Assembly (NCBI GenBank): GCA_949130485.1
Contig: OX422183.1
Coordinates: 20,553,934 to 20,617,933, forward strand
Source: Agelas oroides
Taxonomy: Eukaryota; Porifera; Demospongiae; Agelasida; Agelasidae
Direction of reading: 5' to 3'
DNA length: 64,000 nucleotides
The first letter of the stretch is position 1; each line of letters opens with the position of its first letter. The notes below the pieces were generated by a model. It saw only the letters and a program-made list of their open reading frames with translations, was not told the origin of the DNA and made no database searches. Both the position numbers and the translations under genes were made by a program. Below are positions 14,824-59,100 of the stretch, in pieces.

Positions 14824-15746
14824 ACACTACTACCCTTCATCATTCACTTCTACCTTTCATCATTCACTAGTACACTTCACCATTCACTACTACCCTTCAT
14901 TATTAACTGCTTCTCTTCATCTTTCACTACTACCATTTATCATACCCTGCTACACTTCATCATTCACTACTATCCTTCATTATTAACTGCTTCTCTTCAT
15001 CTATCACTATTACCCTTTATCATACCCTACTACCCTTCAACATTCACTACTACACTTCATCTTTCGCTACTACACTTCTTCATTCACTACTACCCTTCAT
15101 CATTCACTACTACCCTTCATCCTTCACTACTACTCTTCATCATTCACTACTACTCTTCATCATTCACTTCTACCTTTCATCATTCACTACTACCTTTCAT
15201 CATTCACTACTACCCTTCATCATTCACTAGTACACTTCATCATTCACTACTATCCTTCATCATTAACTGCTTCTCTTCATCTTTCACTACTACCCTTTAT
15301 CATACCCTACTACCCTTCAACATTCACTACTACACTTCATCATTCACTACCAACCTTCATCATTCAAAACTACACTTCATCATTCACTACTACCCTTCAT
15401 CTTTCACTACTCAACTTCATCATTCACTACTCAACTTCATCATTCACTACTACCCTCCATCTTTCACTACTCAACTTCATCATTCACTGTTACCCTTCAT
15501 CATTTACTACTACCCTTCATTCACTACTACTCTTCATCATTCACTACTACCCTTCGTCATCCACTACTTCCCTTCATCATTCACTACTACCCTTCGTCAT
15601 CCACTACTTTGCTTCATCATTCACTACTGCACAATATGCACATTAGCATTCACTACTACCCTTGATTCACTACTACACTTCATGATTCACTAATACACTT
15701 CAGCAATCACTACTACCCTTCATAATTCACTACTACCCTTCATCAG
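14824..15746. repeat. 20-bp minisatellite, about 45 units
   Basis: The unit is CATTCACTACTACCCTTCAT, with many point variants (ACTTCAT, TCTTCAT, TTAACTGCTTCTCTTCAT) and occasional 17-bp units. A higher-order block of about 400 bp, marked by TTAACTGCTTCTCTTCATCT and CATACCC variants, appears at 14900-15030 and again near 15260-15320. It suggests a segmental duplication inside the array. Confidence 0.95.
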
Positions 15747-16882: not shown

Positions 16883-18118
16883 TCAGTGCTGCACAGGTCC
16901 ATACGCTATGTTCCCCCTCAATTCAATCTTGTGCACAGGTCCATATGCTTCATTCTCCCTCAGTTCTATCTTCTGAACAGGTCCATACGCTTCATTCTCC
17001 CTCAGTTCTATCTTCTGAACAGGTCCATATGCTTCATTCTCCCTCAGTTCGATCTTCTGCACAGGTCCATGTGCTTCATTCTCCCTCGGTTCAATCTTGT
17101 GCTTCCCACTGGTGGTAGGCACCTCCTCATACTCTGTACCTGTCTGCGGCTCTTGGCAGGAAACTAGCATGGGTCCATAAGCTTCATTTGCTTTCACCTT
17201 AAAACCAGTCTGTATGGGTCTATGGGCCTTCTTCGGTCTCAGTTCAGTCACCTCCTCATACTCTGTACCTGTCTGCTGCTCTTGGCAGGAAGCTAGCATT
17301 GGTCCATACGCTTCATTCTCCCTCTGTTCAATCTTCTGAACAGGTCCATACGCTTCATTCTCCCTCAGTTCGATCTTCTGAACAGGTCCATACGCTTCAT
17401 TCTCCCTCAGTTCAATCTTGTGCTTCGCACTGGTGGCAGGCACCTGCACCTCATCATACTCTGTACCTGTCTGCTGCTCTTGGCAGGAAACTAGCATGGG
17501 TCCATAAGCTTCATTTGCTTTCACCTTAAAACCAGTCTGTATGGGTCCATAGGCCTTCTTTGGTCTCAGTTCAGTCACCTCCTCATACTCTGTACCTGTC
17601 TGCTGCTCTTGGCAGGAAGCTAGCATGGGTCCATAAGCTTCATTTGCTTTCACCTTAAAACCAGTCTGTATGGGTCCATAGGCCTTCTTTGGTCTCAGTT
17701 CAGTCACCTCCTCATACTCTGTACCTGTCTGCTGCTCTTGGCAGGAAGCTAGCATGGGTCCATATGCTCTCAGTTCTATCTTCTGAACAGGTCCATACGC
17801 TTCATTCTCCCTCAGTTCTATCTTCTGAACAGGTCCATATGCTTCATTCTCCCTCAATTTAATCTTCTGCACAGGTTGCTGAAGTGCATTGCATGATGGT
17901 ACTGACTGTGGCTGTTGGTGAGAAGCTGATTTTGGCTTGCAACTCTGTGATCGTTGGTTGATGATGCTGTAGAACACTATTACTGTCAGGACTCCAATGA
18001 CCAGTCCAATGATGCCAGTCACAACTACTGCAGTTCCCACTGCAGCACCTCTGCTGAGAGTAGCACCTGTACCAAGGGTAGCACCTGTACCAAGGGTAGT
18101 ACCTTTGCTGAGTGTAGT
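16883..18118 (-). CDS. Receptor transmembrane and tyrosine-array cytoplasmic exon (gene A)
   Basis: This is the last exon of a single-pass membrane protein. After an acceptor at 18119-18120 come a Thr/Gly/Ser-rich stalk, one membrane span (VGTAVVVTGIIGLVIGVLTV), a basic stop-transfer segment and a cytoplasmic tail of about 340 residues. The tail is built of repeats: VQKIELRENEAYGP units of 14 residues, and longer units containing GTEYEEVTELRPKKAYGPI. I count 15 intact AYGP motifs, two decayed ones (AHGP, AHRP) and five YEEV/YDEV motifs. These are YxxV, YxxI and YxxM sites of the kind phosphorylated and bound by SH2 domains. Pairs such as YEEV-8 residues-YGPI have ITAM-like spacing. Exon start, span and tail match receptor gene B (51377-51667), which has only three such tyrosines. 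The ectodomain exons were not located with confidence. Confidence 0.8.
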   Translation of the reverse strand, partial: TTLSKGTTLGTGATLGTGATLSRGAAVGTAVVVTGIIGLVIGVLTVIVFYSIINQRSQSCKPKSASHQQPQSVPSCNALQQPVQKIKLRENEAYGPVQKIELRENEAYGPVQKIELRAYGPMLASCQEQQTGTEYEEVTELRPKKAYGPIQTGFKVKANEAYGPMLASCQEQQTGTEYEEVTELRPKKAYGPIQTGFKVKANEAYGPMLVSCQEQQTGTEYDEVQVPATSAKHKIELRENEAYGPVQKIELRENEAYGPVQKIEQRENEAYGPMLASCQEQQTGTEYEEVTELRPKKAHRPIQTGFKVKANEAYGPMLVSCQEPQTGTEYEEVPTTSGKHKIEPRENEAHGPVQKIELRENEAYGPVQKIELRENEAYGPVQKIELRENEAYGPVHKIELRGNIAYGPVQH

Positions 18119-19433
18119 CTGTGCAATACCTGGCACAAGTAATTCAGATTTGTGGCCAATTGTATATTTTAACCTCTTTTGACACTACATGGCCAGAGGG
18201 GGGGGGGGGTACAAATTTGGTACACACTAGTCATAAGAGATACCCTAAGACAACTTTCAGTAGCTCTTTGTGCCAGAAGATGTAGATTTATCAGTGAGAA
18301 ACAAGAAGAGGTGCAAAACTACGCAATATTGAATTGAGGCCAGAAGCAGCCAGTGTTATAAGGAAGACTTGAGTAAACCCCTTCCCACACTGGAATGGAA
18401 TAATAAACAAGCTGGAAGCCCTAGTATACTATTTTGTTACCACAAGCTGCCTGTGAACTATCTCCTATTTAGGAGTCCTAGGGTTACATGTGAGGTACAA
18501 TATAGGTTGGAACAACTTTGTTAATCTTCTAATAAGAGACAACTGATGCTTACAATGACAGTAACAATATAATGGCAATGATTTCTAAGGCAAACATGGT
18601 GCATGCTACCAAACTTTCCTGTAATGGCATAAATACACCAACCTGTATTGCACCTCATATTTAGTCCTGAGACTCCTATTATCATTGGCTCAGCTCCCAG
18701 TAAGTTGAACAGTAAACTCATACACCTTTCACCGTATTTTGCTTTGCATACATGATATTAGTGCACCTATACATATTTTCCTTCCCATAGCTTGCGTGAT
18801 TGAATGATGCAACAGGTTTGTTGAAATTAGCTGTTTGTTCACTATAGTTGAAAGTTTTCTTGTTCAAACATGGATCCCATGGGTATGCTCTCACATCATT
18901 ACAGGACAGAAACTCAGAGAACAGGGATTTGGACAGGAATGTAAGTAATACAAGCTACCAAAATGGTTCCTAAAAGTGTCAGTCAGCAGAAAAGAAAGAC
19001 AGTTGGCTTGCCATATAGTAGATTTACAACTACCTATAGTTAGCTGGTAAATGTCGAGCTGAGCAGCTAGATTTTCAGCATGCATGACAAAACTATCTGT
19101 GATATGAACTGTGCAAGACATGCAGCCAACCTGCTTTGGCTATATACTACAGAATCATGTTGGCAAAACATGACGTCCTTGCTTGCTCATGACTCATCAT
19201 GATAAATAATCTCCCTAGTTATCAACATATTAAATTAAATAAAGTTTTGCCTATATATTGCCACTAACATCTCATGGTGCAACATGTCCACTTGGCTAGG
19301 CACACACCAAATTGCCATTGACTTGACATCACTTAAAGTCTGTTAAAGTTTTGACCTGAAAAGGGCTGATTTTAACATGTGTGCATTACTAACGAAATGC
19401 TATACATAGCTTACACATAAGACTTCCACTTAC

Positions 19434-27220: not shown

Positions 27221-27870
27221 GATGTTGGCTTTGGCAGAGCAATGATGCGAGCAACCCAGATAGTGCTGCACACAATCGTGTGGACCCTCTGGGCTACTCA
27301 CACCAGGATGCGGCAAGGTGAGGGCAGAGCAGTGATGTTGGCTTTGGCAGAGCAATGATGCGAGCAACCCAGATAGTGCTGCACACAATCGTGTGGACCC
27401 TCTGGGCTACTCACACCAGGATGCGGCAAGGTGAGGGCAGAGCAGTGATGTTGGCTTTGGCAGAGCAATGATGCGACCAACCCAGATAGTGCTGCACACA
27501 ATCGTGTGGACCCTCTGGGCTACTCACACCAGGATGCGGCAAGGTGAGGGCAGAGCAGTGATGTTGGCTTTGGCAGAGCAATGATGCGAGCAACCCAGAT
27601 AGTGCTGCACACAATCGTGTGGACCCTCTGGGCTACTCATACCAGGATGCGGCAAGGTGAGGGCAGAGCAGTGATGTTGGCTTTGGCAGAGCAATGATGC
27701 GAGCAACCCAGATAGTGCTGCACACAATCGTGTGGACCCTCTGGGCTACTCACACCAGGATGCAGCAAGGTGAGGGCAGAGCAGTGATGTTGGCTTTGGC
27801 AGAGCAATGATGCGAGCAACCCAGATAGTGTTACACACAATCTTGTGGACCCTCTGGGTTACTCACACCA
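27221..27870. repeat. 113-bp tandem array, about 5.75 units
   Basis: Units begin near 27221, 27334, 27447, 27560, 27673 and 27786, each with GATGTTGGCTTTGGCAGAGC. They are nearly identical, and the last is more diverged. The array lies about 220 bp beyond the 3' end of the nuclease-CXC gene, so it may be part of that gene's host element. Identical short frames read through it are artefacts of the repeat. Confidence 0.95.
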
Positions 27871-28085: not shown

Positions 28086-31000
28086 TTATAACACCCACCC
28101 CATTATATGCTCAATATCCTCATCACCCTCAACTGTAAGTGCCTTCGTGTCTGCTTCCCTGCTGCTGGCTGGCAAGTTACAACAATTCAGGCATGTGCAA
28201 CCTGCTCCACAACTATGCCTCTCTCGCTTGCACCCACACTGCATAGTTGTGCATGCAGACCGTCTGCAGCTACACCCTTTTCTCAGAAGTGACACCCTCT
28301 GCCTTACGTCCATCATGTTCTCCCTGCTGTCCCAATCTATACGCAACTCTCTATCTTCCACAATCCACCCATTACCACGCATTGCCTTCATCACCATTAC
28401 ATTTTGGGTTGCCTGTTGCCACATGTCGGCTACCCAGCTGGCTCTTTTCCAATGGCGCTTCAGTGCTTCATCGGATGGCAGCATGTCCTCCTCATATTGT
28501 ATCTTGCCCCAAATCCTATTTCTGATGTCTTGAAGCCAGAGGAGATGTTGGTCGTGGTGATGCTGTCCTTCTTTGCAGAAAGAGTTGAAGTGCTGGTTTG
28601 GAGATGTAAACGCTGGCAAGAAGGCTGATCTGTGTTTGTGAAAGTATACACTTCCCACCAGACGCATAAAGGCCAAAAATCCCAAATCACTAGCACCATC
28701 CACTAGGGATGTGTCTGTGAGTGTGCCAGGTGTGTGCCCTAATCCAGATGTTATAAATTCGGCATACCTCCAAAACGTTTGAATAAATGAGGCTTTACCA
28801 AATCCATGAAAAAAGGACACATAATCACAGCCTGTTGATAAATAAACCATCTGCATTGTGGTTGCTAGTTTGTCATTAGGAATGCTAGCCAGTTCTGGAT
28901 CAGCACTGAATGTATCCAAGAGGGCACCTATGTCGAGCAGACAAAGCTCCTTGGAGTTAAACCTGCTTAGCTGCACTTTCACATCCATTTTATGTTTGGC
29001 GACAATGGGCAAGCCTATATGGTACACATCTGTGTCTGGTGACACAACCAGCTTCTTCTCACCTGCTGAATGTAAAGCATGTAGCCAGATCCTGGTGTCC
29101 GCTTCTTCGGCATTGCAACGTAACTTTGGATCTGGCTGGGGAGGGCTGTGTTGTTGCAATGTGAGGGCTTCATCTTGGAGTGAACCTTCAAAACCTCCAG
29201 CAGTTACAAACAACTGTGTTGTGCGTAAGCTGTTACTGATGTGATTTACAAGGTAGGTGGCAAGGAACGATACCAGTCCTCTCTTGCACCGATGACAAGT
29301 CAGAATACTTTCTTGCCACCTCTTTGGTGTTGCATTGCTTCATTAAAGGTGATGCAAGAATGAGTGGTTTCAGCCTGTGCACTCCTTCTTGCTCTTTCAA
29401 ATGCTTTGGGACTGTTCGTATGCCTTCCTGGGTGATCGAAAAGGAGGTGTACTTCCTTTGATCCTCGAGCAAAGTGTGGTAGGATGTGTTGTTTTGCTAG
29501 GAAGTTGGCATAGTCTGACATGGTCTTGTGGTGTCCCCATGGAGATATGTGTTGCAGAAACATGCCATCAATTAGCACAACATCTGCTACCCATTGAGTG
29601 GGATGGACATTTGATGTGATGTTTCTACAAGCCTTTGAATACCTACTTTCAATTAACCTTGTTATGCTTGACTTCTGTCCCTTCTGTGGTAATCCATCCT
29701 TATCAACAAGGGCACGTGGTAGCTCAACATACTGCTCAAATCTATTCTCTATTACTCTTTTGGTCTTGCAAGCAAAAGCCACCCTCTTCTTCCAACACTC
29801 TATTTGAAGCTTCCTCTCCTTTTCCACATCTGAAACTCTCTTGGCCAATGGTTTACGCTCTGAGAATGTGCGGAGCCTCTTCCGACGCTTAGGAACATGC
29901 ACACTTGGAGCTTGCAGAATGTTGTATTCAACAAATCTTTCAAACTCCTTCTGACCAATGGAACAGAAGGTCATGAGGTCTTCTGCCACATCAGGAGATA
30001 CACCTTTTCCTGAGAATAGGTGTATTATAGGTGATGCTTGGGATTGGGCTGTGAGATGACTTTCAGAGGCAAGTTTTGTTGTTTGTGCTTGGATGTTTGC
30101 TGCCTGTTTGATTGCATCACGTGTAGCACATGTCAGAGTTAGTATATCATCTATGCCATCAGATTGAGCTTCAGGAAAAAGCTGTGTATCTAAGTTTTTC
30201 ATACTCTTGGAAAGAACTGGCAGGAATGTAGCCACACGCTTGATGTAATCAGCACTAGGTTTTGCTATGGCCTCCTTGCAGTCTTTGTTGATAGCCATCT
30301 CGTGGGCTTCGTCAATGTGTGCATGCCTTCCTCTGAAGCTGATGGAGAAACCTCCTTGCTGTAGAGCATTGAGCACTGGTGTTGGACACTTGCAAATGTC
30401 ATCAATGTGCTGTGCAATCAGCTTCTCATAACATGGCCTATCAAAAGCTGTAAACAAAGCAGCCATTTGTTTTATAGAAGCCATCCTCAAATGCCAGTTC
30501 CCTGTTCTTATGGCCAGAAAGAGACCAAGGTATGCCAAGCAGTCTTGAAATACAAATTGCTGCCAGAATCTCCAAGATTGGTCTCTAGATGCCATAGATT
30601 GCATGAATCTGTCAAAGTCTTCAAGAAACATGGGATGTTTTTCCATTACGTCAGACAAAAGCTCTTGTAGGTTTCTGTGACACTGCTGTTCAGTAGTTGC
30701 TGTTGGAAAGGATTGGAGCCACTGGCTAACATGGGCTAGCATATCACTGTGCTCAGTTGTGGAAGTATCTGGGTTGTACATGTTCTGCAGGAACACAGTC
30801 AGAAAATGTTGATACAAGCTCTCCCCTGCTTCCAAGAGGAAGTCATGAGTTCTGCTGAAGATGGTGCAGTTCTTTATTTAGTTGGGTGGACAACCACTGG
30901 CCACTGCTAATTCATGCAGTCCTGCATCGTAATAGATTTTCATGAGCACTTCTTGATAGTTCTTCAGGCAGTGCCAGTCGCCTGGAAATGGTGTTAACCA

Positions 31001-31157
31001 GGACAACTCCTCCCCGTACTCGGTCTTTATGGACTGTATTTTGTGGTATACAGCTCCATCCATTTCTAGAAGCAGCCACTGTTTCTTAAGCTTTATAATA
31101 AAGTCTTCATGAAGACAATTTATGATTTCAAGCAGTGTAAGTTTATCGTCAACTTTT
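28086..31157 (-). pseudogene. FEN1/XPG-like nuclease with C-terminal CXC domain (broken, 5' end cut)
   Basis: It is a single-exon-like frame of about 1,020 codons. The N-terminal part has MDGAVYHKIQSIK and PFPGDWHCLKNYQE, resembling DUF6589-type sequences of sponge and cnidarian repeat proteins. The middle has the acidic landmarks of a PIN/FEN nuclease: LIDGMFL, LLFDHPG, AEEADTR (29097-29108) and SPDTDV (29028-29042). A helix-three-turn-helix-like GCDYVSFFHGFGKASF follows. The end holds a Cys-rich CXC (tesmin/TSO1-like) segment, CSCRRSACTTMQCGCK and CGAGCTCLNCC. Two lesions are visible: an in-frame TAA at 30878-30880 after ASGCPPN, and a one-base shift near 29310-29330. Coding continues upstream to the first base of the element at 31158, where it stops. 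The N-terminus was probably lost to that insertion. It is probably transposon-derived; the naming is by motif only. Confidence 0.72.
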
Positions 31158-31325
31158 TACGGTGGCCCTGGAGGTCGCGCTACGCGACGATGTCTATGCG
31201 ACGATGACGATGCGCCGATAGACGATGACGATGCGACGATAGACGATGACGATGCGACGATAGACGATGGCGATGCGACGATAGACGATGGCGATGCGAC
31301 GATAGACGATGGCGATGCTATAATT
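31158..31325 (+). repeat. Left terminal inverted repeat with 21-bp minisatellite
   Basis: After about 45 bp of unique terminus there are about six copies of GACGATGACGATGCGACGATA, the inner copies with GGC for GAC. Reading frames through it give runs of DDDDATI peptide on one strand and IVYRR on the other. They are not genes. Confidence 0.9.
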
Positions 31326-32572
31326 TACCAGGTAAGTAATACAGTAATAACGCATGCGCGCGCGCCAGACCGGACACCACACCACGCCCTCATATATTCC
31401 ACGTGGCCATGTGTGATTAAGTGTGAAGAGCAACGGAATTGCGAGTTGAAGAGCGGTCGTGAAACTTGTGGAACACTGAGTTGGAGAGGAGAACGAGCGT
31501 CTGGAAGAGAGCACTGACTTGGAGAGCGAAGGTGTGTCCGGGAGCAATTGGTGAACGCGTGGAGGCAGTTCTTGGGAGAGCACCAATACTCGGTGAGGCA
31601 CACATTAAGCTTGTTAGGTATAAGTATTATGGTTTTGAATAGGTAGGAAAGTAGTATGGTGTTGTTAAAAGTGAGGGGAAACACTAGTAATGGACATTAG
31701 TCTCGTTCCCAGACCCTACCAACCCCAGCGGGGATCGCTTTCAGTATCTCGCGCAGGGAGGAGGGTCTGGTGACTTTTGCCATGTTTCCATGTTCTCTGC
31801 AGGAATTCGTGCAGAGCCAATTGTGATTGCAGAAGTGCAACCAGCTGCATAGATGATTTCCAAAGATTATGTTAACGTTCACTATTTTGGAACTTAGCAT
31901 ACCCTATGTTCCTTTATATATTGCGGGCAACAGACACCAAAACGCCATTGTTCTAGCCACTCAAAATGGCTACCTGCATCATATACACAAAGTTTATGAT
32001 GTTATGGTGGCATAAGGGCAGGCTAAGTTGCTGATCATCACAGCAAATAGCTATAGCAGTAACAAAGCTTAGTTTGCTTTGTGCATTCCTGGAATAATAC
32101 TCCCACTGTGAGTTACCATCCTCTCCAGCAGCGATGCAAGGGACCTTTTCATCCAACAATAGAACAAGCAGTTTTCCACACCCGGTTGGCTGACATACCA
32201 TGTGGCTAGCTAGCTCAGTGATCATCATGCCTATTAATCCCACTCTAAAGGTTACGGTAAGTGCCAGAGCATACCCCCAATGTGTGTACCTGTGACTATT
32301 GCCTGATACATACAATAGACTTATTACAACACAGTTGCTAACACCTGTGCTTTGCTTGCACACAAAGACTTACCAGTTAACAACTCTCTTTGATCAGTAT
32401 TGCAGTGTTAATCCATCACCAAAATAAAAGACTACTGATCTTCCTTTCAATGTTTCCAACTTCAAAAAAAAGTGTTTGTTGGATTATCTATAGCAGTGTT
32501 ACCTGTACCTTCCTATGATGGACTGAAGAAGATATCATTTTGTGGTATGGTATACTGCTTAGTATAGGGCGT

Positions 32573-35483
32573 GATGGCAGAACGTCTAGCAAAAGTCCTG
32601 GAGAAGCTAGCTGAGGAAGGGAAACTTCAGAGTACCCTCACTGCTTTGGAAAGCACATCATCTACTCAAAAGGAACCCCAACCCAGCAGCCAGCGTAAGT
32701 TCAATGTGCAATATTGGTGTTCTTTTTTTGTGTGGTGCAGCACACACTGGTGTGAGTTACATAACATGTGAGGCATGTATATTCACTGGTGCAAGCTAGC
32801 TGCTACCCTGCAGAAGTACTGCCAAGTGGACACTGTTCTCACAGTACAAAGAGCATCTAAACTGACTGCTAGCTCAGAACTTTTCACATAAATTTAAAAT
32901 TCAATCGGCAGAATTTTTTGAGGGGGGAATTGGAGTGTTTTGGGGGAATCTTTCCCCCCCCCATTAGATACAACCCTGCGATACACATACTGTAGGTACA
33001 ATTCAACAGTGGTTATATATGTATCTACACAGGTTTCAAGAGTGTGAATGAGCTTGTTAAGCATTATCAACAGAAACAAGCAGAAGATCGCAGACCAAAA
33101 AGCCAACCTAAAGTTGGGACACAGAGCAAGCAAGACAGCTCAGTAAAGGAGATGCCAAACAAGTCATTTTCTGTAAGACTTTATCTTTTGGAAGTCACCT
33201 GCACAAGTAATAACTATAATGGTGCTAAATTCTACCCCACAGCTGAACTTTGCCAAGTATCGAAGGGCTAGAAGGTTCACGTACAAGATGATGCCTCCTG
33301 GAAAAGTTCAAGTCCCAGGCTTTTGCAACACAGACGTGCATAGGGACGTCATCACAAAAGGAGCGAGTGGGCTTGGTATAGACACTTCCCCTGACCAACT
33401 CTCCCTAATCGTTTCAAATGGCTTGATTAGAGATGCTCCGCTTCCCAGTGGTCAGCAATGGACGCTTGGGAATTACGTAGATGACTTTGGTGGGGTTCAA
33501 GCGAGGGGGAAGCGTACATTTGGAATTTTGGTTCCAGTGGATGAAGAGGAGGAGGAGGAGGAAGAACAAAGCAAAAGCAGGGATGGACAGGTAAAAATGG
33601 GAATGAGGCAAATGCAAGGGTATTTTATTGTCATGTGTACATAATTCCCAGCATCAGCAGGGACAAAGTTCTGATCCAGCCCGTCGAAGATCATGCCCAA
33701 CTACCAGAATTTGCACAGTTGCTGCTAGTAAGCACCGATATGTGTGCAGAATGTTGTGTTGTCTGTATTGTGCTTATCATGTGCATTGTGTACATGCAGC
33801 TGAATGCACTCCTAACGTTACAACCTGTTTTTGTCATGCAGAAAGACTCAAAGGATTACAATCTACTTCCACATTGGGGACCATAGCAGAAGATCCTATC
33901 AACCTTGACAGTGACAGTGATGAGCCCCTGGAGTATGAATTTGAGGAGAGCACCACCTTAGGTACGTAGATGTAGTAAAGTCGTAGAAGAAAGTATACTT
34001 TACTCAGGAATGTATACTTAACTCAGGACTGTATAGCCCAGTGTCATCCGGAAAGGTCTTTCCAAGCATCACTGCCAATGGTAGGGAAGGGGTGTGGCGC
34101 CTACTGCGCATTGAGTACTGTACTCCACAGGAAAAGGTTTTGAAGGAAATGGAGGATGACATCTGTAATCTTCAACCGGAATCCGAGGGTTTCATTCTTG
34201 TGGAACTTCGTTCAGGTGCGCATGCCATATAGTCCACGTGGATCACTCCTGGAATGTTTCAATTGTGGTTGTACTCTGCAGGTGGAACAACATACCTTAA
34301 GGCTGAGACAGATGGTACAACTGAGGTCGAGGTCCAACACCTTAAATTCTTTGTGAAAGGTAACCCTTAACTGTGTTGATGTTGTCCAAATCTATAAGTT
34401 GTATGGTAAACGTTATATTCTCAGAGAAGAGGATTGTCCATAGCATAACTTCTCTCCAACTGGGCAAATCACCAGTATCTCTCATTGTTATTTCACCGCA
34501 TCATGGAAGCGTGCCATATAAGTGGGAATGGAAATGCATATATATGGAGGACTGGAAGGTAATAGACGTTCCTTCATGGACATGCCTCCTGCGTGCTGAT
34601 TCTACCGGTCAGTACAGGTGCACTGTTGAAGACTCCACCATTGTGTTTCATGTGCGAGGTTTGTGCAAGTACTGTGACATACTCTTGTTTATTATATAAA
34701 CCAATGTTCACTCTATTCCCTGTAGCACCCCCAAGGCAGCGTAAAGAGAAGGAAACTACCCTTGAGGATGGTAAAGGCAGCAGTAAATGTGCTATAAATT
34801 CCCTTTTTCATTGCAAATCTTTTCTATTATAACAGAGTTATCCACTGACTACAAGGAACGTGGCGTGGCACCTTTGGCATTGTATACAAGGGGGCATGGA
34901 AGGGGCAGACAGTTGCCCTTAAACGCATCCAAATTCCACCATTATGGTAAGTGTTGTAGTTACACAAATAGCGATTTGTTTCTTGGTTGTTCTCATTGTG
35001 GCCCGCCTATCATCAATTTACTTTGCACATTGAGATGTGTACATGCATACTTGCCAGTATTTCAATGTAATGCTACCGGTCAGTGATGATCTCAAGGGTG
35101 TATTTATATGTGACATGGGGATTTCGAAGATCAGACATGCCTCCCACACATCCATGACAACGCTTTCAAATGGCCCCACGGGAACATTTCCCTATATGGC
35201 TCCCGAAATGTTCGGCACAGGACATAGGGGTACAGCTGTGGACATTTACGCGCTGGGCTGTCTATACATTGAACTGTTTGGGAGGAGGAGGGTGTGGCCA
35301 GGGCTGGACAGGATACAAATTATGCAAAAGGTATGTGGGTCCTTCCAAAACCCACCAGTTATGCCTCTCACCAGCCATCTTCGCAGCAAGTTCCGCAAGG
35401 TGTGTTGTGATTGTGTCGAATTAGACAGCAAACGGCGTCTTCAGATAGCAGCTGTTATCAAGCTTCTTGAGAACATTGCATAG
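32573..35483 (+). pseudogene. Multi-exon gene: novel domain, SIM-like motif, Ig-like domain, decayed protein kinase
   Basis: Eleven exons with good splice sites: 32573-32694, 33033-33172, 33243-33590, 33652-33727, 33842-33961, 34042-34215, 34282-34359, 34425-34658, 34726-34770, 34836-34946 and about 35084-35483. Most introns are phase 1. The start is a helical MAERLAKVLEKLAEEG segment. Exon 3 is an unrecognised domain of about 95 residues (KYRRARRFTYK to ARGKRTFGILVP) and an acidic run. Exon 5 has INLDSDSDEP, a SUMO-interaction-like motif. Exon 8 is Ig-like (YKWEWK, TGQYRC). The last two exons are kinase: GTFGIVYKGAWKGQTVALKR, then CDMGISK in place of DFG, and APEM. A one-base shift disrupts the glycine loop, and the alpha-C to HRD region is missing. 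There is no signal peptide. It is decayed or a pseudokinase, and its role in the element is unknown. Confidence 0.65.
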
Positions 35484-35594
35484 TCCAGATTATCACATCA
35501 AACCGTTCATTGCCTTTGCATGTATTGGTTTGGTTCCAAGGCTAGCTCATCACAGTTATATACTCCTATGTGCATTAGCACCCCTCATTTTAAT

Positions 35595-38110
35595 CTATGA
35601 TGACATTGTATTACACAAGTGCCAATAAATTGGTCTTGCATTACTGATGGTGATGTCTTCACGGTTCATGTTTAGTTCTTCCAAAATGGCTGTAGCTGCT
35701 ACTTCAAATTCTTCTGGGTAAAATGGTGGTGCCTTGTATGCTAACTCCAAGTAGCAGTGGGACCACACCAGGAAGTCCAGAGGCTGTTTGTATGACCTAG
35801 TTCCTGGCATGTATTATACAATAAGGTGATAGTAGTTACACTGCAATATCACAGGGTACTTGATTGCAACCCACCAGTTCTCTGTGGAAGATAGTAGAGG
35901 TCATCAGGTGATCCTGGTGGACAGCCAGCTAGTCGGCTTCGTCTGATGCAGTGAGTATTCCACCTCTCCTTGAAAGCTTGTAGTGCATCTTTTAGCAGCA
36001 TTCCATACACATATAACAAACAGTGTCTGTATAGTAATTAAAAATTAAGGTGGTTGTAAACATCCCACTGCTTGACAGCAATGACTTACCTATGAGTTTC
36101 ATTGTGTGGATTGAAACTTCCATCCTGTACAAGATCCTACATTAAACAGCCAGTCTAACTTAATGTGCATACATGATAAACAGCATCTGTTAACCAACTT
36201 TGAACAAGTTAATCCACCAATCTGTCACTGAGTTTCTTAGCTGTGCCCACCAACTTTCAATCCTCTGTACAAGGGAAGTGTTAGATGTGTAATTCAAACA
36301 TAATGTAGCATCAGAAGCAAAAATGTCGGACTTAACTGTGTTTGTGGTCGAAGATCCATACCAAAAACTCTTTTCTCCCCGAAATTCATCCTGATGGTTA
36401 TGTCTAAGAGCCATATGACTGGCAGCAAGTGCCGTATTTTCAGTGCCACGATCTGATATAACAGTACTTGGACAACCTAGGATACAAAATAAATTGTTTT
36501 CATGATCAACAATTCCCTCCGAATTGTACTGTTAGAGTGTTACATGTCCCCCCAGACACCTAGTGTAAGATATCCCAGTGTACAATGTGTCCACCCTACT
36601 TGCTCTCACTCAAACTTTCAGTCTGTATTTAAATAGGAAGGTATTGACACAGTTACAGGATTGTACATCCAGCAGCACTAGTATTTTGAAGGCTTGACAA
36701 CCTGGCTGTGTCGAAAGTGAAATGATCACTTCACATGGTCTCTGGTTGTATTCTAGTTCTAGAAACATTCAGAGGGACAAATTTGGGTAGGGGGGAGGGG
36801 GGCAAATTCAGAGAAGGGCGGAGACCTTTTAACCCTGGAGGTCAGTCTTTAGCTTATAATTGACTTACTGGGATTGGAGGCTATACAAGGTGAGAGGACT
36901 GTTTTCTAGGTCCATTTACACATAAATCGAGAAATGGCCTATACCCGGCTCCCACCAAGAGCTTTTCACGGGCAAGCCCAGACACAGCCATGCTGTTTGC
37001 ACCCTCCGGTGCACTCACCCACCTCCCCCTATCCCGCCCCTTCTGCTGAAGCAGAACCTATCTCCAAAGGACATTGCCGGAAGTGACGTCAGAAGCTGAA
37101 AGTCTCACGTCACTGGTTGGTAAAGGGCTACACTACAACACTGTGTATGCATTTACTTACCATTGTTGATCAGTATAGCTAGTAAGTATGACAGTAACAC
37201 GACATTTGGATCATTGTTTGTTGTGGAAAGCTCTCCAACCAAATAATTCTTCGAGAATAGCTGAAAAAGCAAAGGTAGAAGGCACATAACAAATCCTTGT
37301 GCAGTCTACTTTATTGGAACCATGCGGGAATTAGGGATTCACAGTACACAGTATACCTAAAGGTCCCAACTCACCCATCAATACAGCCATGTATGGCAAA
37401 ACCATAAGGTTTCAACTTGTCATACCCGTCCAGGTGCCAAACAAAGTCTGGGCCCTATGGAAGGCAAGTGAAGCATAGTATTACATTTTCAACAAAACAA
37501 TCATTATCATGAAGCTCACTTTGTTTTGATACACCCTTCTTCTCAGTCTACGACCTCTACGCCTTCTGGCTCCCTCGGGGTCGAGCAGTGACAGTAACAT
37601 TTGCACTGTGCTCCTACACGTAATGTAGTTGCATGCATAATAAGAGACAACCTCTAGGTGTTCAGGCCCTCACAGTACCTTTTCACCACTAGACCATGCT
37701 TTTGTTTCAGTACAACCCACATCTGCCGATAACCGATGTTGTTGCTGCAACCTTGTAGCTCTGCCTGGATTGTCATATAGTGGACAGTTTTGTTCAACTG
37801 CATGCATCAAGTACATAAATAGGAAGTGGGCACACCTCAATAGCCTCTTGCACTTGAGACACAGGAGAATAATGTACCATTGGTCCCCTACGATGCAATC
37901 CTAATGCACTCAGTCGTCTTTTCAACCATGTCAACCTACGTGTAACATAACGTCAATTCACACGACTGACTCTGTGGTCAAGTATTTTGGCAAGCTCACC
38001 CTACTGCAACGTGGTGGACAAGTTGGAGGTATGCAAGTATCACCTCGATCTTGTACTGGAACCAATACCTCCTTATAAGACCTATTCAGCAAATCCATTG
38101 ATTGTATATG
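35595..38110 (-). CDS. DDE integrase-core transposase (multi-exon, one probable frameshift)
   Basis: Exons read by eye: about 37995-38110 (weak), 37836-37935, 37679-37797, 37520-37613, 37375-37454, 37161-37260, 36337-36476, 36199-36264, 36090-36136, 35860-36026 and 35595-35803. Most joins agree in phase. Landmarks in order: LKRRLSALGLHRRG, GYRQMWVVLKQKHGL, LLDPEGARRRR, HLDGYDKLKPYGFAIHGCID (first catalytic Asp), SDRGTENTAL (second Asp), QDEFRGEKSFWYGSS, RIESWWAQLRN (Glu), WNTHCIRRSR and PDDLYYLP. This matches the animal integrase-core transposase family (Pfam-type 'integrase core', RIE-WW signature), possibly the IS3EU group. Exon 37161-37260 needs a one-base shift between YSRRIIWLE and TTNNDPNVV, so this copy may be inactive. 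All three acidic residues are kept. Confidence 0.8.
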
Positions 38111-38459
38111 TCAGTAATGGTTTGTGGCCTGCCTCACTCTCCTTCCAACTATTGAATTTAATAGCCCTTGTGAAAACTTACGGTCTACTTGGGGGTCCGT
38201 CCTTGGGAGGGCAAAGCAAGAAACACACTGCACAGCTATTACCACCACTACAATTAATTCTCTCACAAACAAGTTCATTATGAATTTTCTGAGAACTGAA
38301 TTTGAGCTACAAATTGCCTTCAGTCTTCACGTGGACCACTTGAATGTGTATAGATTTACGTGTGGTGTACGGTTGGGGGCGTGGCGTGGTGTCCTGCATG
38401 GCGGCGCGCGCCCGGCGGGGCGTATTGTCCGGTGCCGCGCGCACTGTGGGCGTTGGCAT

Positions 38460-38635
38460 CGTCGCTCGCATCGCCGTCGTCTATCGTCGCATCGCCATCG
38501 TCTATCGTCTATCGTCGCATCGTCATCGTCTATCGTCGCATCGTCATCGTCTATCGGCGCATCGTCATCGTCTATCGGCGCATCGTCATCGTCGCATAGA
38601 CATCGTCGCGTAGCGCGACCTCCAGGGCCACCGTA
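38460..38635 (-). repeat. Right terminal inverted repeat with 21-bp minisatellite
   Basis: It is the inverted partner of 31158-31325. The outer roughly 80 bp are almost identical, whereas the number and order of inner units differ. That fits replication slippage or unequal exchange after insertion. Confidence 0.9.
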
Positions 38636-56106: not shown

Positions 56107-59100
56107 ATGTTGCTGCTACTACGTCGTATTGGTAAGCAGTAGCTTGCGTCAATAATTTGATGGAAAGACAACATTACCTTGCTTACCACAGCTGCTGCTA
56201 CTGCTCTACTCTCTTTCACTATTCTACAGTATGCAGGTGAGGCTATAGATAGCTATGATGTATACAACATGAATCAGATCATATCACATCATATGTATGG
56301 TGTAGTCTCATATCCCACACTCTAGTTTCTTGGATTAGCGTGCATTCTGGTCAAGGAATGGCAGCAAATTGAGCAGTGCTGTTTGACCTTAGTCTTGCCA
56401 GCCAGACCCTTTCTGCTCCTCAGTGACTGGGCTGCTGACCACTTGCCCCTCTCCTTTGTGTACCAATAATGAAAGCAATAGGCCCTGAGGAACAAAAAGG
56501 GTCTGGCTTGTGAGACTATTTTGACATTGAGTGCTCCTGATTGTAATTGAGGAAATTGGTGAGTTATCCACAAATTCTAGTTGATGGAATTTCTAGCTAA
56601 TGAGTCAGTTCGAATCTGAGAAATTCTAGCAGGCTAATGGTTTTGGGTATCTCTATTCACTGGACTGGACTACTGGACTGACCTTTTTGCCACTAAAAAT
56701 CATACACTCACCTACCAGTAGAGTTGCAAGCTACATTGTACTAGCCTGTAAAACACTGCCTTTTGCTGTCCAATGCCCTTTTGACTACAATTAGTTTCCA
56801 AATGGGCAGGGCCAACTACTTTGGAAAGCAACCATGTAATCGAGAGGTACCAGTACTGTTGACCTTTTGCCTTGATAGATCTTCTACTTGTATACCTCAC
56901 TTGTCACTCATTTTAGGGATTGATGGAATATTTCTTTGCCTGCATTTTCGTGTAGCTACACTGCACGCTAACCCCGCCTAAACCACATACCGTATGCCAT
57001 GAACTGGTCACTTCACTATACTGGCAGATTGATCATGCTCAAGGTTGCTTCTCAACAGTGATCACTCTGGAGTGACAACTGCGGTATAAATGCAAGTTGG
57101 CAGCTTTCCCAAGTCCATGTGTTATTCCTATAGTAATTATAAAACATTTACTAGACTTTTATTTGCCAGGAAACAGCTCCATTTGATTAGTGTAAAGCTG
57201 TCTTTCTAGGCAGTATACAACACTACAAGAAACTGAGACTAATTACAGGGCATAAAAATGATTTTTAGTGACAATAAGGTCAGTCCAGTAGTCCAGTCCA
57301 GTAGTCCAGTTCAGTAGTCCAGTCTAGTAGTCCAGTCCAGTAGTCCAGTCCAGTAGTCCAGTCCAGTTGTCCAGTTCAGTAGTCCAGTCTAGTAGTCCAG
57401 TCCAGTAGTCCAGTCCAGTAGTCCAGTCTAGTAGTCCAGTCTAGTAGTCCAGTCTAGTAGTCCAGTCCAGTAGTCTAGTCCAGTAGTCCAGTCCAGTAGT
57501 CCAGTCCAGTAGTCCAGTCCAGTAGTCCATTTCAGTAGTCCAGTGAATAGAGACACCCAATGGTTTTCCGATATTTTGTGAACATCTATGAAATCACAGA
57601 ATTATTACTGATGTCACAATGGCGTCCAAGTATGGCAAGTATATAGAGATGCTGAAACTCCAAGTGCAGGCTGTTCACATGAAAATAACAGTAGTTTACC
57701 CAAGTAAACAAGGTGACAGAAAGGTTGTACTATAGAATTTGAAGTAAATGTCTTTCAAAGGTTTTGCATTTTGCCTCGGTGCACTGTATGTTTTAGGAGT
57801 TTCACTTTTTAAGGTACCAGAATCAGTGTAGTGAATTGAATGTGAGTGAGCCTCACATCACACAACCCTACTCCCTGTCATTGCTCCTACACTGAAACCA
57901 TGTTACACACATTCTGGCTAGTACAAGAATGGGCACGCCCTACACGGCTGAAAAGTCATCTTTCTACTGTACCTTTGCCAGAGAGAACTGTGTGATGACG
58001 CTCGTCTTCCAGGATGTCTCTCAACCTTTCAAGCATACTCACAAGCAAAATCCCACTCCTTCTAGCTTTTCTCACACAAATAGCAAGCTAAAAGTTAGTG
58101 TCTTTTCTTTTAAGTGTTGGAGGATTTGTTCAAAGTTCCGCCTGACCCATGAAAGTGTAATACCATCATCAACAGTAGCTAGCTACCACATGAGCATGCA
58201 AGGCATGTAATTGTTACATACTGCACTGACTTAATACATACCGGAAATTTACAAGTGTGATCAGGCCCCTTTCCCAATTATTTCGAGCAGTTGGGAAATA
58301 TATAAGAGGAGCCATTTTCTTGATAGCAGCTTCTAATCGGCTGTAGAAATTTGAAATTTGTGGGCATGGTGTGTATTTTACCATGTTTACATGATTATTA
58401 TTGATGAATTTTTAAAGACGACAGACGTTATGCAAAAGTAAAATCTAGGTCTGCACAATAAATTTCGGCCAATACCAGGCCTCATCAGCTGTGCTTGGGT
58501 GAGTGGGAGATGAGGGCTGCTATCTCTTGCACAATTACACACTGATAGTTTGACTGAACAAAGACTTGCATGAGTACATTCAACAAACACTAATGATTCA
58601 TTACATAAATGCATGTTTACTGACAAGCAATAGATACGGCTGGGTGCACAATTCTGGAACAAGGCTAACCTCTTCAACTTCTCTAGAGACTAGTTACGTT
58701 GGGTTGAATATTATAGCCTCAAGTGTGTAATGCATGACCAGCCAATGTGCTGAGGCTGCTTTCTGTCCATCATGCAGTCAACCACACTTCTCAAGTTCTC
58801 ACATAATGCAGCTAGTTGGAGGGAGAAAGGGAGACCATACGATGACACTGTTTTCATGTTTTGTTGACGTATCAACCACTTCTGCATATAAAACTTCTCA
58901 GAAAGGCATTTGTTCTAAATGGTAGGTGTGGTCAATCGATTGATAGGCTGACCATGTTATTGAACAGATATGATACAGAACATGCTACAAAGATTGATAG
59001 GGAGAGAGACTCTAGGCCTATGAAAATTTCGCAGATTGCTCATCGTAGGTGGATAAATACCACATGGAGTCTATGTATCTAGCACCCACCCCCTTTTTGA

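What the first reader, a model, noticed from the sequence alone, without database searches (positions are those of the whole stretch)
31158..38635. Candidate new DNA transposon: DDE transposase plus a kinase/Ig gene between minisatellite-bearing termini
The sequence shows matching inverted ends enclosing two convergent, intron-rich genes. One is an integrase-core transposase with all three catalytic acids. The other combines an unrecognised domain, a SIM-like motif, an Ig-like domain and a kinase. A kinase companion inside a cut-and-paste transposon is unusual and may be captured host cargo or a functional helper. Single-element status is inferred, since no clean target duplication is visible.
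Basis: partly seen in the sequence, partly recalled or inferred. Interest (0 to 1): 0.85.

Follow-up and report, generated by a model that had tools for sequence, protein, structure and literature searches.

The report
Jumping gene carrying a protein kinase
This is a damaged copy of a cut-and-paste jumping gene of the IS3EU kind that carries a gene for a signalling enzyme (a protein kinase) beside its transposase; related jumping genes in the same genome keep the same pairing, which suggests that the kinase helps the element rather than being stray cargo.

Summary
The element is real: 31158-38635, 133-nt inverted ends (98%) with a 21-bp minisatellite, two convergent intron-rich genes. It is an IS3EU-type DNA transposon: termini TACGG..CCGTA; perfect 6-bp target duplications at 7 of the 10 complete pairs read (13 pairs seen). 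The kinase gene is no one-off. A sister family (65% transposase identity) has the same two genes in two copies 99.6% identical over 5.5 kb at unrelated sites. Five more loci, fetched for their transposase alone, carry a convergent kinase (5 of 5, four families). By coordinates, 11 of 14 multi-exon transposase loci have a convergent kinase-gene hit and 0 of 14 a HECT hit; of 44 single-exon relatives, 0 and 16. Codon positions indicate purifying selection on both genes. The window copy is defective: frameshift between the first two catalytic acids, kinase lacking the alphaC-to-HxD stretch, flanks from two different repeats (hence no clean duplication). Fungal IS3EU with an alpha-kinase in opposite orientation is published (PMC12730594, passages). 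The TKL/IRAK-like kinase with Ig-like domain, its constancy across families, and the HECT alternative were not found in nine literature searches. What the kinase does is inferred.

The parts
31158..38635 (.). whole element (family A), decayed copy
   Evidence: inverted ends; other copies and deletion copies
31158..31318 (+). left terminal inverted repeat with 21-bp minisatellite
38466..38635 (-). right terminal inverted repeat with minisatellite
32574..35483 (+). partner gene (kinase gene), decayed
   Evidence: ORFs; homology to the L052 gene by tblastn; junctions
33243..33590 (+). exon with the unassigned domain
   Evidence: 48% identical to L052 over 100 aa, 9.8e-28; only element loci found in the genome
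33892..33921 (+). SIM-like letters; conservation not seen
34080..34358 (+). middle domain, unassigned
   Evidence: tblastn with L052, 1.75e-11
34406..34657 (+). Ig-like domain (weak assignment)
   Evidence: tblastn with L052, 1.6e-15; Pfam only for family C, below cut-off
34864..34932 (+). kinase G-loop and lysine remnant
   Evidence: 65% identical to L052 over 23 aa
35091..35483 (+). kinase DMG to C-lobe
   Evidence: Pkinase 2.6e-15; tblastn with L052
35592..38278 (-). transposase gene (integrase core); the first exons are uncertain
37374..37454 (-). exon with first catalytic D
37160..37260 (-). exon broken by a small private insertion
   Evidence: the C10 and C17 copies lack it; no in-frame GT..AG solution
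36336..36476 (-). exon with second catalytic D
36198..36264 (-). exon with catalytic E

Best explanation
The window holds a decayed member (family A) of an IS3EU-type DNA transposon lineage. An integrase-core DDE transposase cuts and re-inserts the element at its TACGG..CCGTA ends and makes 6-bp target duplications. The convergent second gene encodes a multidomain protein (unassigned domain, middle domain, Ig-like domain, TKL/IRAK-like kinase) that belongs to the element and has been kept by selection across several families. It most likely acts as a helper: by phosphorylating host proteins (signalling, silencing or repair factors) or the transposase, it makes the cell more permissive for transposition. 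Shown by computation: boundaries, movement of the two-gene unit, linkage across families, purifying selection, complete catalytic letters in the L052 kinase. Inferred: that the kinase is made and active, and what it acts on. The window copy is itself non-functional, and its two ends lie in different repeats. Odds: about 0.93 for an IS3EU-type element whose partner gene is constant in this lineage; about 0.7 for helper rather than passenger; about 0.35 for any one target such as innate-immune signalling.
For: Ends and 6-bp duplications, 7 of 10 read pairs. Transposase rva_4 8e-37 for L052, 65% identical to the window protein. Two copies 99.6% identical over 5.5 kb, at C15 and C2, each with its own duplication, both with both genes. 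Kinase exons convergent with the transposase in 5 of 5 loci fetched on the transposase alone. 11 of 14 against 0 of 44 in the coordinate count; shifted positions give a mean of 0.023, at most 1. Codon-position identity 0.59/0.78/0.35 in the kinase C-lobe and 0.58/0.75/0.32 in the unassigned domain. Termini TAYGG..CCRTA with 6-bp duplications are reported for fungal IS3EU (PMC12730594, passages).
Against: The window copy has no clean duplication and two broken genes. The C18 family C pair has only a 4-bp repeat at its borders, and no ends were found in the fetched stretches of families D-F. Three of 14 multi-exon loci lack a kinase row: the C10 copy still has a kinase C-lobe, C1:20411512 lies in a 2.5-kb pair, C1:2935815 was not read. 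The family A/B kinases are only 20-31% identical to those of C, E and F in the DFG-to-APE exon, and the unassigned domain of C, E and F is only 25-29% identical to the window's, so the partner may not be one gene by descent throughout. No expression or activity data.
Confidence: 0.8

Rival explanations
1. Passenger: a host TKL/IRAK kinase gene was captured in an ancestor and rides along without helping transposition, or serves the host after insertion.
For: Many kinase genes of this type lie elsewhere in the genome (138 matches at E up to 1e-8); deletion copies without an intact kinase gene exist, so the ends can be mobilised in trans.
Against: The pairing holds in six families (A-F) whose transposases are 39-63% identical to one another, with purifying selection between A and B; a neutral passenger should be lost or replaced at random.
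Confidence: 0.25
2. Host gene by chance: an ordinary host kinase gene happens to lie between two unrelated inverted ends.
For: Intron-rich gene with animal-style domains; the two flanks of the window copy come from different repeats.
Against: Both genes lie inside inverted ends with perfect duplications in L052 and L053 and moved as one unit; shifted-position controls give almost no pairs.
Confidence: 0.02
3. Helper with a different mode: the protein matters through its unassigned and Ig-like domains (binding the transposase, the ends or a host factor), and kinase activity is secondary.
For: The unassigned domain was found only at element loci, while the kinase class differs between A/B and C/E/F.
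Against: The catalytic letters of the L052 kinase are complete, and the kinase C-lobe is under purifying selection like the rest.
Confidence: 0.25

Closest known systems
IS3EU superfamily of eukaryotic DNA transposons (PMC10045372 and PMC12730594, passages read)
   Same: TA..TA, here TACGG..CCGTA, termini; long inverted ends; 6-bp duplications; integrase-core DDE transposase without HHCC module seen
   Different: Carries a TKL/IRAK-like kinase gene with unassigned and Ig-like domains; ends contain a minisatellite; no comparison with Repbase members was possible
TET+ IS3EU of fungi with an alpha-kinase gene (PMC12730594, section 4.1 read)
   Same: A kinase gene and the transposase gene in opposite orientations inside one element
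   Different: Alpha-kinase there, Pkinase/TKL-type here; no TET/JBP gene was looked for or seen here
GingerRoot and IS481EU (PMC10045372, passages read)
   Same: Related transposases; GingerRoot has 6-bp duplications and mostly TA..TA ends
   Different: Known there from a clubmoss and from parabasalids respectively; IS481EU encodes a single protein and has duplications of other lengths
CTR1, TAK1, MLK and IRAK4, BIK1 kinases
   Same: Closest solved sequences to the family B kinase (CTR1 3ppz, 1.3e-31) and to the family F kinase (6cth 5.5e-29, BIK1 1.8e-28, IRAK4 7.8e-26)
   Different: Carried by a transposon with other domains; CDMG in place of DFG in families A and B

Membership tests
IS3EU | TA..TA termini (TAYGG..CCRTA in the fungal families) | tested here: met
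   TACGG..CCGTA in families A and B, TATGG..CCATA in family C and L066
IS3EU | 6-bp target duplications (usually) | tested here: met
   Perfect in 7 of 10 read pairs of families A and B and in L066; not met at the window copy, C17, C1:19357076, nor at the C18 family C pair
IS3EU | Terminal inverted repeats longer than 30 bp (stated for fungal TET+ families) | tested here: met
   133 nt at 98% in the window; about 200 nt in L052 and L053
IS3EU | Integrase-core DDE transposase | tested here: met
   rva_4 8e-37 for L052 and 3.7e-80 for L066; that rva_4 is the IS3EU transposase family is my inference
IS3EU | Transposase groups with IS3EU/GingerRoot in a tree | not testable with these tools
   No Repbase sequences at hand
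TET+ IS3EU of fungi | Alpha-kinase gene in opposite orientation to the transposase | tested here: not met
   The kinase is Pkinase/TKL-type, in opposite orientation; the alpha-kinase search of the genome did not complete
immunoglobulin domain | Profile match above the curated cut-off | tested here: inconclusive
   Family C Ig_2 E 0.0014, below cut-off; no hit for window or L052
protein kinase (Pkinase) | Profile match and catalytic letters | tested here: met
   L052: 7.4e-48, profile 3-259 of 263, letters complete; the window copy is incomplete

The most novel reading that the evidence does not exclude
IS3EU transposons are two-gene machines in which the transposase is paired, convergently, with a host-signalling enzyme, and the enzyme class changes between lineages: alpha-kinase in rust and truffle fungi (published), TKL/IRAK-like kinase in the lineage described here, HECT ubiquitin ligase in the single-exon lineage of the same genome. 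The enzyme would be an ancient helper that manipulates a host pathway (silencing, repair or innate signalling) needed for transposition.
Probability: 0.4. Interest if true: 0.82.

Novelty: new variant of a known kind. Interest (0 to 1): 0.62.

Why it matters
Cut-and-paste transposons are usually thought of as a transposase with at most a DNA-binding companion (general knowledge). Here a signalling enzyme has been kept under selection while third codon positions diverged to 26-59% identity, and in a sister lineage of the same genome a ubiquitin ligase stands in the same place. If true, some eukaryotic transposons act on host signalling to move, and near-identical sister copies with both genes make that testable.

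Tried and rejected
Rejected: (1) that the flanks join in frame into one uninterrupted gene with a slightly damaged duplication. A search with that junction and the fetched matches showed that the right flank continues otherwise in L058-L060 and that the left flank has other sequence before it in L057, so the open frame was a coincidence. (2) That the unassigned domain is shared with the HECT partner gene: hhalign probability 0.1. (3) A ubiquitin-like fold for that domain: a designed ubiquitin variant at E 1.3 is not significant, and the single-sequence model was useless (pLDDT 34.5). (4) Relatives in viral contigs: 26 pattern matches, none a relative. (5) PMC4255032, raised by a literature search, was irrelevant (passages). 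(6) PMC9587614 only lists IS3EU as a superfamily (passages).

Not completed: alpha-kinase family search in the genome. Literature searches: IS3EU, IS3EU with kinase, DNA transposon with alpha-kinase and transposase, GingerRoot, four of five terms on transposon, HECT, integrase core and kinase, phrases such as transposon-encoded kinase, IS3EU with sponge, IS3EU with HECT, a six-term combination. Of the papers I looked into (PMC12730594, PMC10045372, PMC4255032, PMC9587614), only PMC12730594 describes a kinase beside an IS3EU transposase; the other papers of these listings were not opened.

Limits of the counts: for I picked by eye, from the 139 rows, 44 single-exon loci and 14 multi-exon loci (three or more exon hits); loci with one or two exon hits were left out. 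The kinase queries came from elements themselves (families B, C, F), so some loci match their own query; the unbiased count is the 5 of 5 loci fetched on the transposase alone, of which L061 and L062 are one family. The HECT list is incomplete: the HECT exon of L066 is not in it, so 16 of 44 is a lower bound. A looser set of 28 transposase clusters, fragments included, had a kinase-gene row in convergent position at 12 and in another arrangement at 1.
Full report
What is there. The window lies in an unnamed 259-Mb genome of 141 contigs. Introns and domain types suggest an animal, possibly a sponge, but I did not establish this. The claimed ends are exact: 2 matches, 0 in 100 shuffles. The inverted arms are 133 nt long and 98% complementary and include 21-bp minisatellite units. 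Between them lie a + strand gene (32574-35483) and a convergent - strand gene (35592-38278), both split by short introns.

The transposase. One exon of the - strand gene matches Pfam rva_4, integrase core, at 0.00066, below the curated cut-off; the joined exons of its homologue in L052 give 8e-37, with sub-threshold HTH_21 and rve matches. The two proteins are 65% identical and share the D, D, E residues. In the window copy the exon between the first two acids carries a small insertion that breaks the frame; the C10 and C17 copies lack it, and no in-frame GT..AG solution was found there. All nine transposase junctions modelled in L052 have in-frame GT..AG solutions.

The kinase gene. Its parts are a short N-terminal exon, an unassigned domain, a middle domain, an Ig-like domain and a kinase. 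In L052 the kinase is complete (Pkinase 7.4e-48, profile 3-259 of 263), with G-loop, lysine, alphaC glutamate, HQD, CDMG and APE as letters (my reading). In the window the stretch equivalent to L052 residues 38-103 is absent, and the stretch aligned to the HxD region contains a stop and no HxD. The window kinase can hardly be active as encoded.

Copies of the same element. The 20-nt end occurs 11 times exactly and 59 times with up to 3 mismatches, against 14 matches of the reversed pattern. DNA searches found a C17 copy (3162062-3166148) that keeps window 31320-33045 and 36534-38460 at 98-99%, the outer parts of both genes with the middle deleted; C2 copies with the kinase-side part; and a C10 copy with window 35221-38162, which includes the kinase C-lobe. 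The kinase side and the transposase side therefore belong to one element.

Sister family. Ends differing at one or two of the 20 places bound a 6.4-kb element at C15 (L052) and a 6.5-kb one at C2 (L053). These are 99.6% identical over 5.55 kb (97.8% over a further 0.83 kb) and carry different perfect 6-bp duplications, so the whole unit moved recently. It shares only two short DNA stretches with the window element (251 nt at 64%, 79 nt at 81%), but L052 has both genes in the same order and orientation. Codon-position identity between the window and L052 is low at third and high at second positions in both genes (kinase C-lobe 0.59/0.78/0.35, 129 codons; unassigned domain 0.58/0.75/0.32, 100 codons; Ig-like 0.58/0.66/0.47, 73 codons; transposase second-D exon 0.72/0.85/0.26, 47 codons), the signature of purifying selection.

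Target duplications. One search shows 13 inverted pairs of these or sister ends. For the ten whose two flanks I could read, seven have a perfect 6-bp duplication and three (window, C17, C1:19357076) match at 4 of 6 positions. At the window each flank matches a different repeat that continues differently elsewhere: the right flank in L058-L060, the left flank in L057 only. This copy was re-joined by recombination or rearrangement, or is an assembly error; I cannot tell which.

Wider survey. The L052 transposase gave 139 matches. The unassigned domain of L052 gave 5 matches at three places: window, C15 and C2. Five intron-rich loci fetched on the transposase alone (L061-L065, four families) all show kinase exons convergent with the transposase. 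The unassigned domain was found in L061, L062 and L065 by alignment and in L064 by eye, and was not clear in L063. Family C ends (TATGGTGGCCCAGTAGTGCA, up to 2 mismatches) occur 163 times against 0 for the reversed pattern; one pair, C18:4477919-4483290, encloses both genes in 5,372 bp, with only a 4-bp direct repeat at its borders. No ends were found in the fetched stretches of families D-F.

Counts. By coordinates, 11 of 14 multi-exon loci have a convergent kinase-gene hit within 6 kb and 0 a HECT hit; of 44 single-exon loci 0 have a kinase hit and 16 a convergent HECT hit; 1,000 position shifts give means of 0.023 (multi-exon with kinase) and 0.029 (single-exon with HECT), at most 1. The one single-exon locus read, L066, is a 6.4-kb element with TATGG ends and a perfect CAGAAC duplication, rva_4 3.7e-80 and a HECT C-terminal exon at 1.4e-6, and no kinase hit of note. 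The closest pairs agree between transposase and kinase (A with B, E with F); 5 of 120 label permutations reach the observed correlation. The kinase of family B is closest to CTR1, TAK1 and MLK, that of family F to plant receptor-like kinases such as BIK1 and to IRAK4.

Against the reading. The A/B kinases are only 20-31% identical to those of C, E and F in the exon compared, and the unassigned domain only 25-29% to the window's, so replacement of the kinase part cannot be excluded. Nothing here shows expression or activity.

Comparison with what is known. PMC10045372 (passages) gives IS3EU as TA..TA termini with usually 6-bp duplications. PMC12730594 (passages; section 4.1) describes fungal TET+ families with TAYGG..CCRTA ends and states that all of them have transposase and alpha-kinase genes in opposite orientations. 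The window element fits IS3EU on the features tested, except that its own copy lacks a duplication; a tree with Repbase members could not be made. It differs in kinase class and in its other domains. No other report of a kinase or HECT gene in IS3EU turned up in the nine literature searches, of which I opened four papers.

How it works. Shown: a mobile two-gene unit, conserved pairing, selection on both genes. Inferred: the kinase acts on host proteins or on the transposase to favour transposition. Passenger cargo is less likely because the pairing persists through deep divergence, but it is not excluded.

Noticed in passing
L066 (C6:3587500-3594500) and 16 single-exon transposase loci in G000: A sister IS3EU-like lineage carries a convergent HECT ubiquitin-ligase gene in the place of the kinase gene.
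   Followed up: partly
28086-31156 and 38636 onward: The left flank is a large open gene (weak DUF6589 match, E 0.17) ending in a cysteine-rich tail; the right flank is a high-copy repeat. They do not belong to one target site.
   Followed up: partly
36875-37068: A repeat, about 74% identical to most of the 43 places, sits in a transposase intron.
   Followed up: no
31709-31829: Part of a short repeat family, 74-86% identical at most of the 77 places, many of them in inverted pairs about 300 bp apart.
   Followed up: no
16883-18184 (-): Open frame of 433 aa with a hydrophobic stretch and many repeats of EAYGP and GTEYEEV type, like a receptor tail with repeated tyrosine motifs.
   Followed up: no
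L042 and L044 (C10:4563762-4566959 and C10:4615655-4616177): A family A copy on C10 is split into two pieces about 49 kb apart.
   Followed up: no
G000 C2:12061017-12065699: A family C kinase gene with a right end downstream but no transposase row: perhaps a copy that kept only its kinase gene.
   Followed up: no
14825-15745, 27221-27870, 57281-57544: Tandem arrays of 20-bp (46 copies), 113-bp (5.8 copies) and 13-bp (20 copies) units.
   Followed up: no
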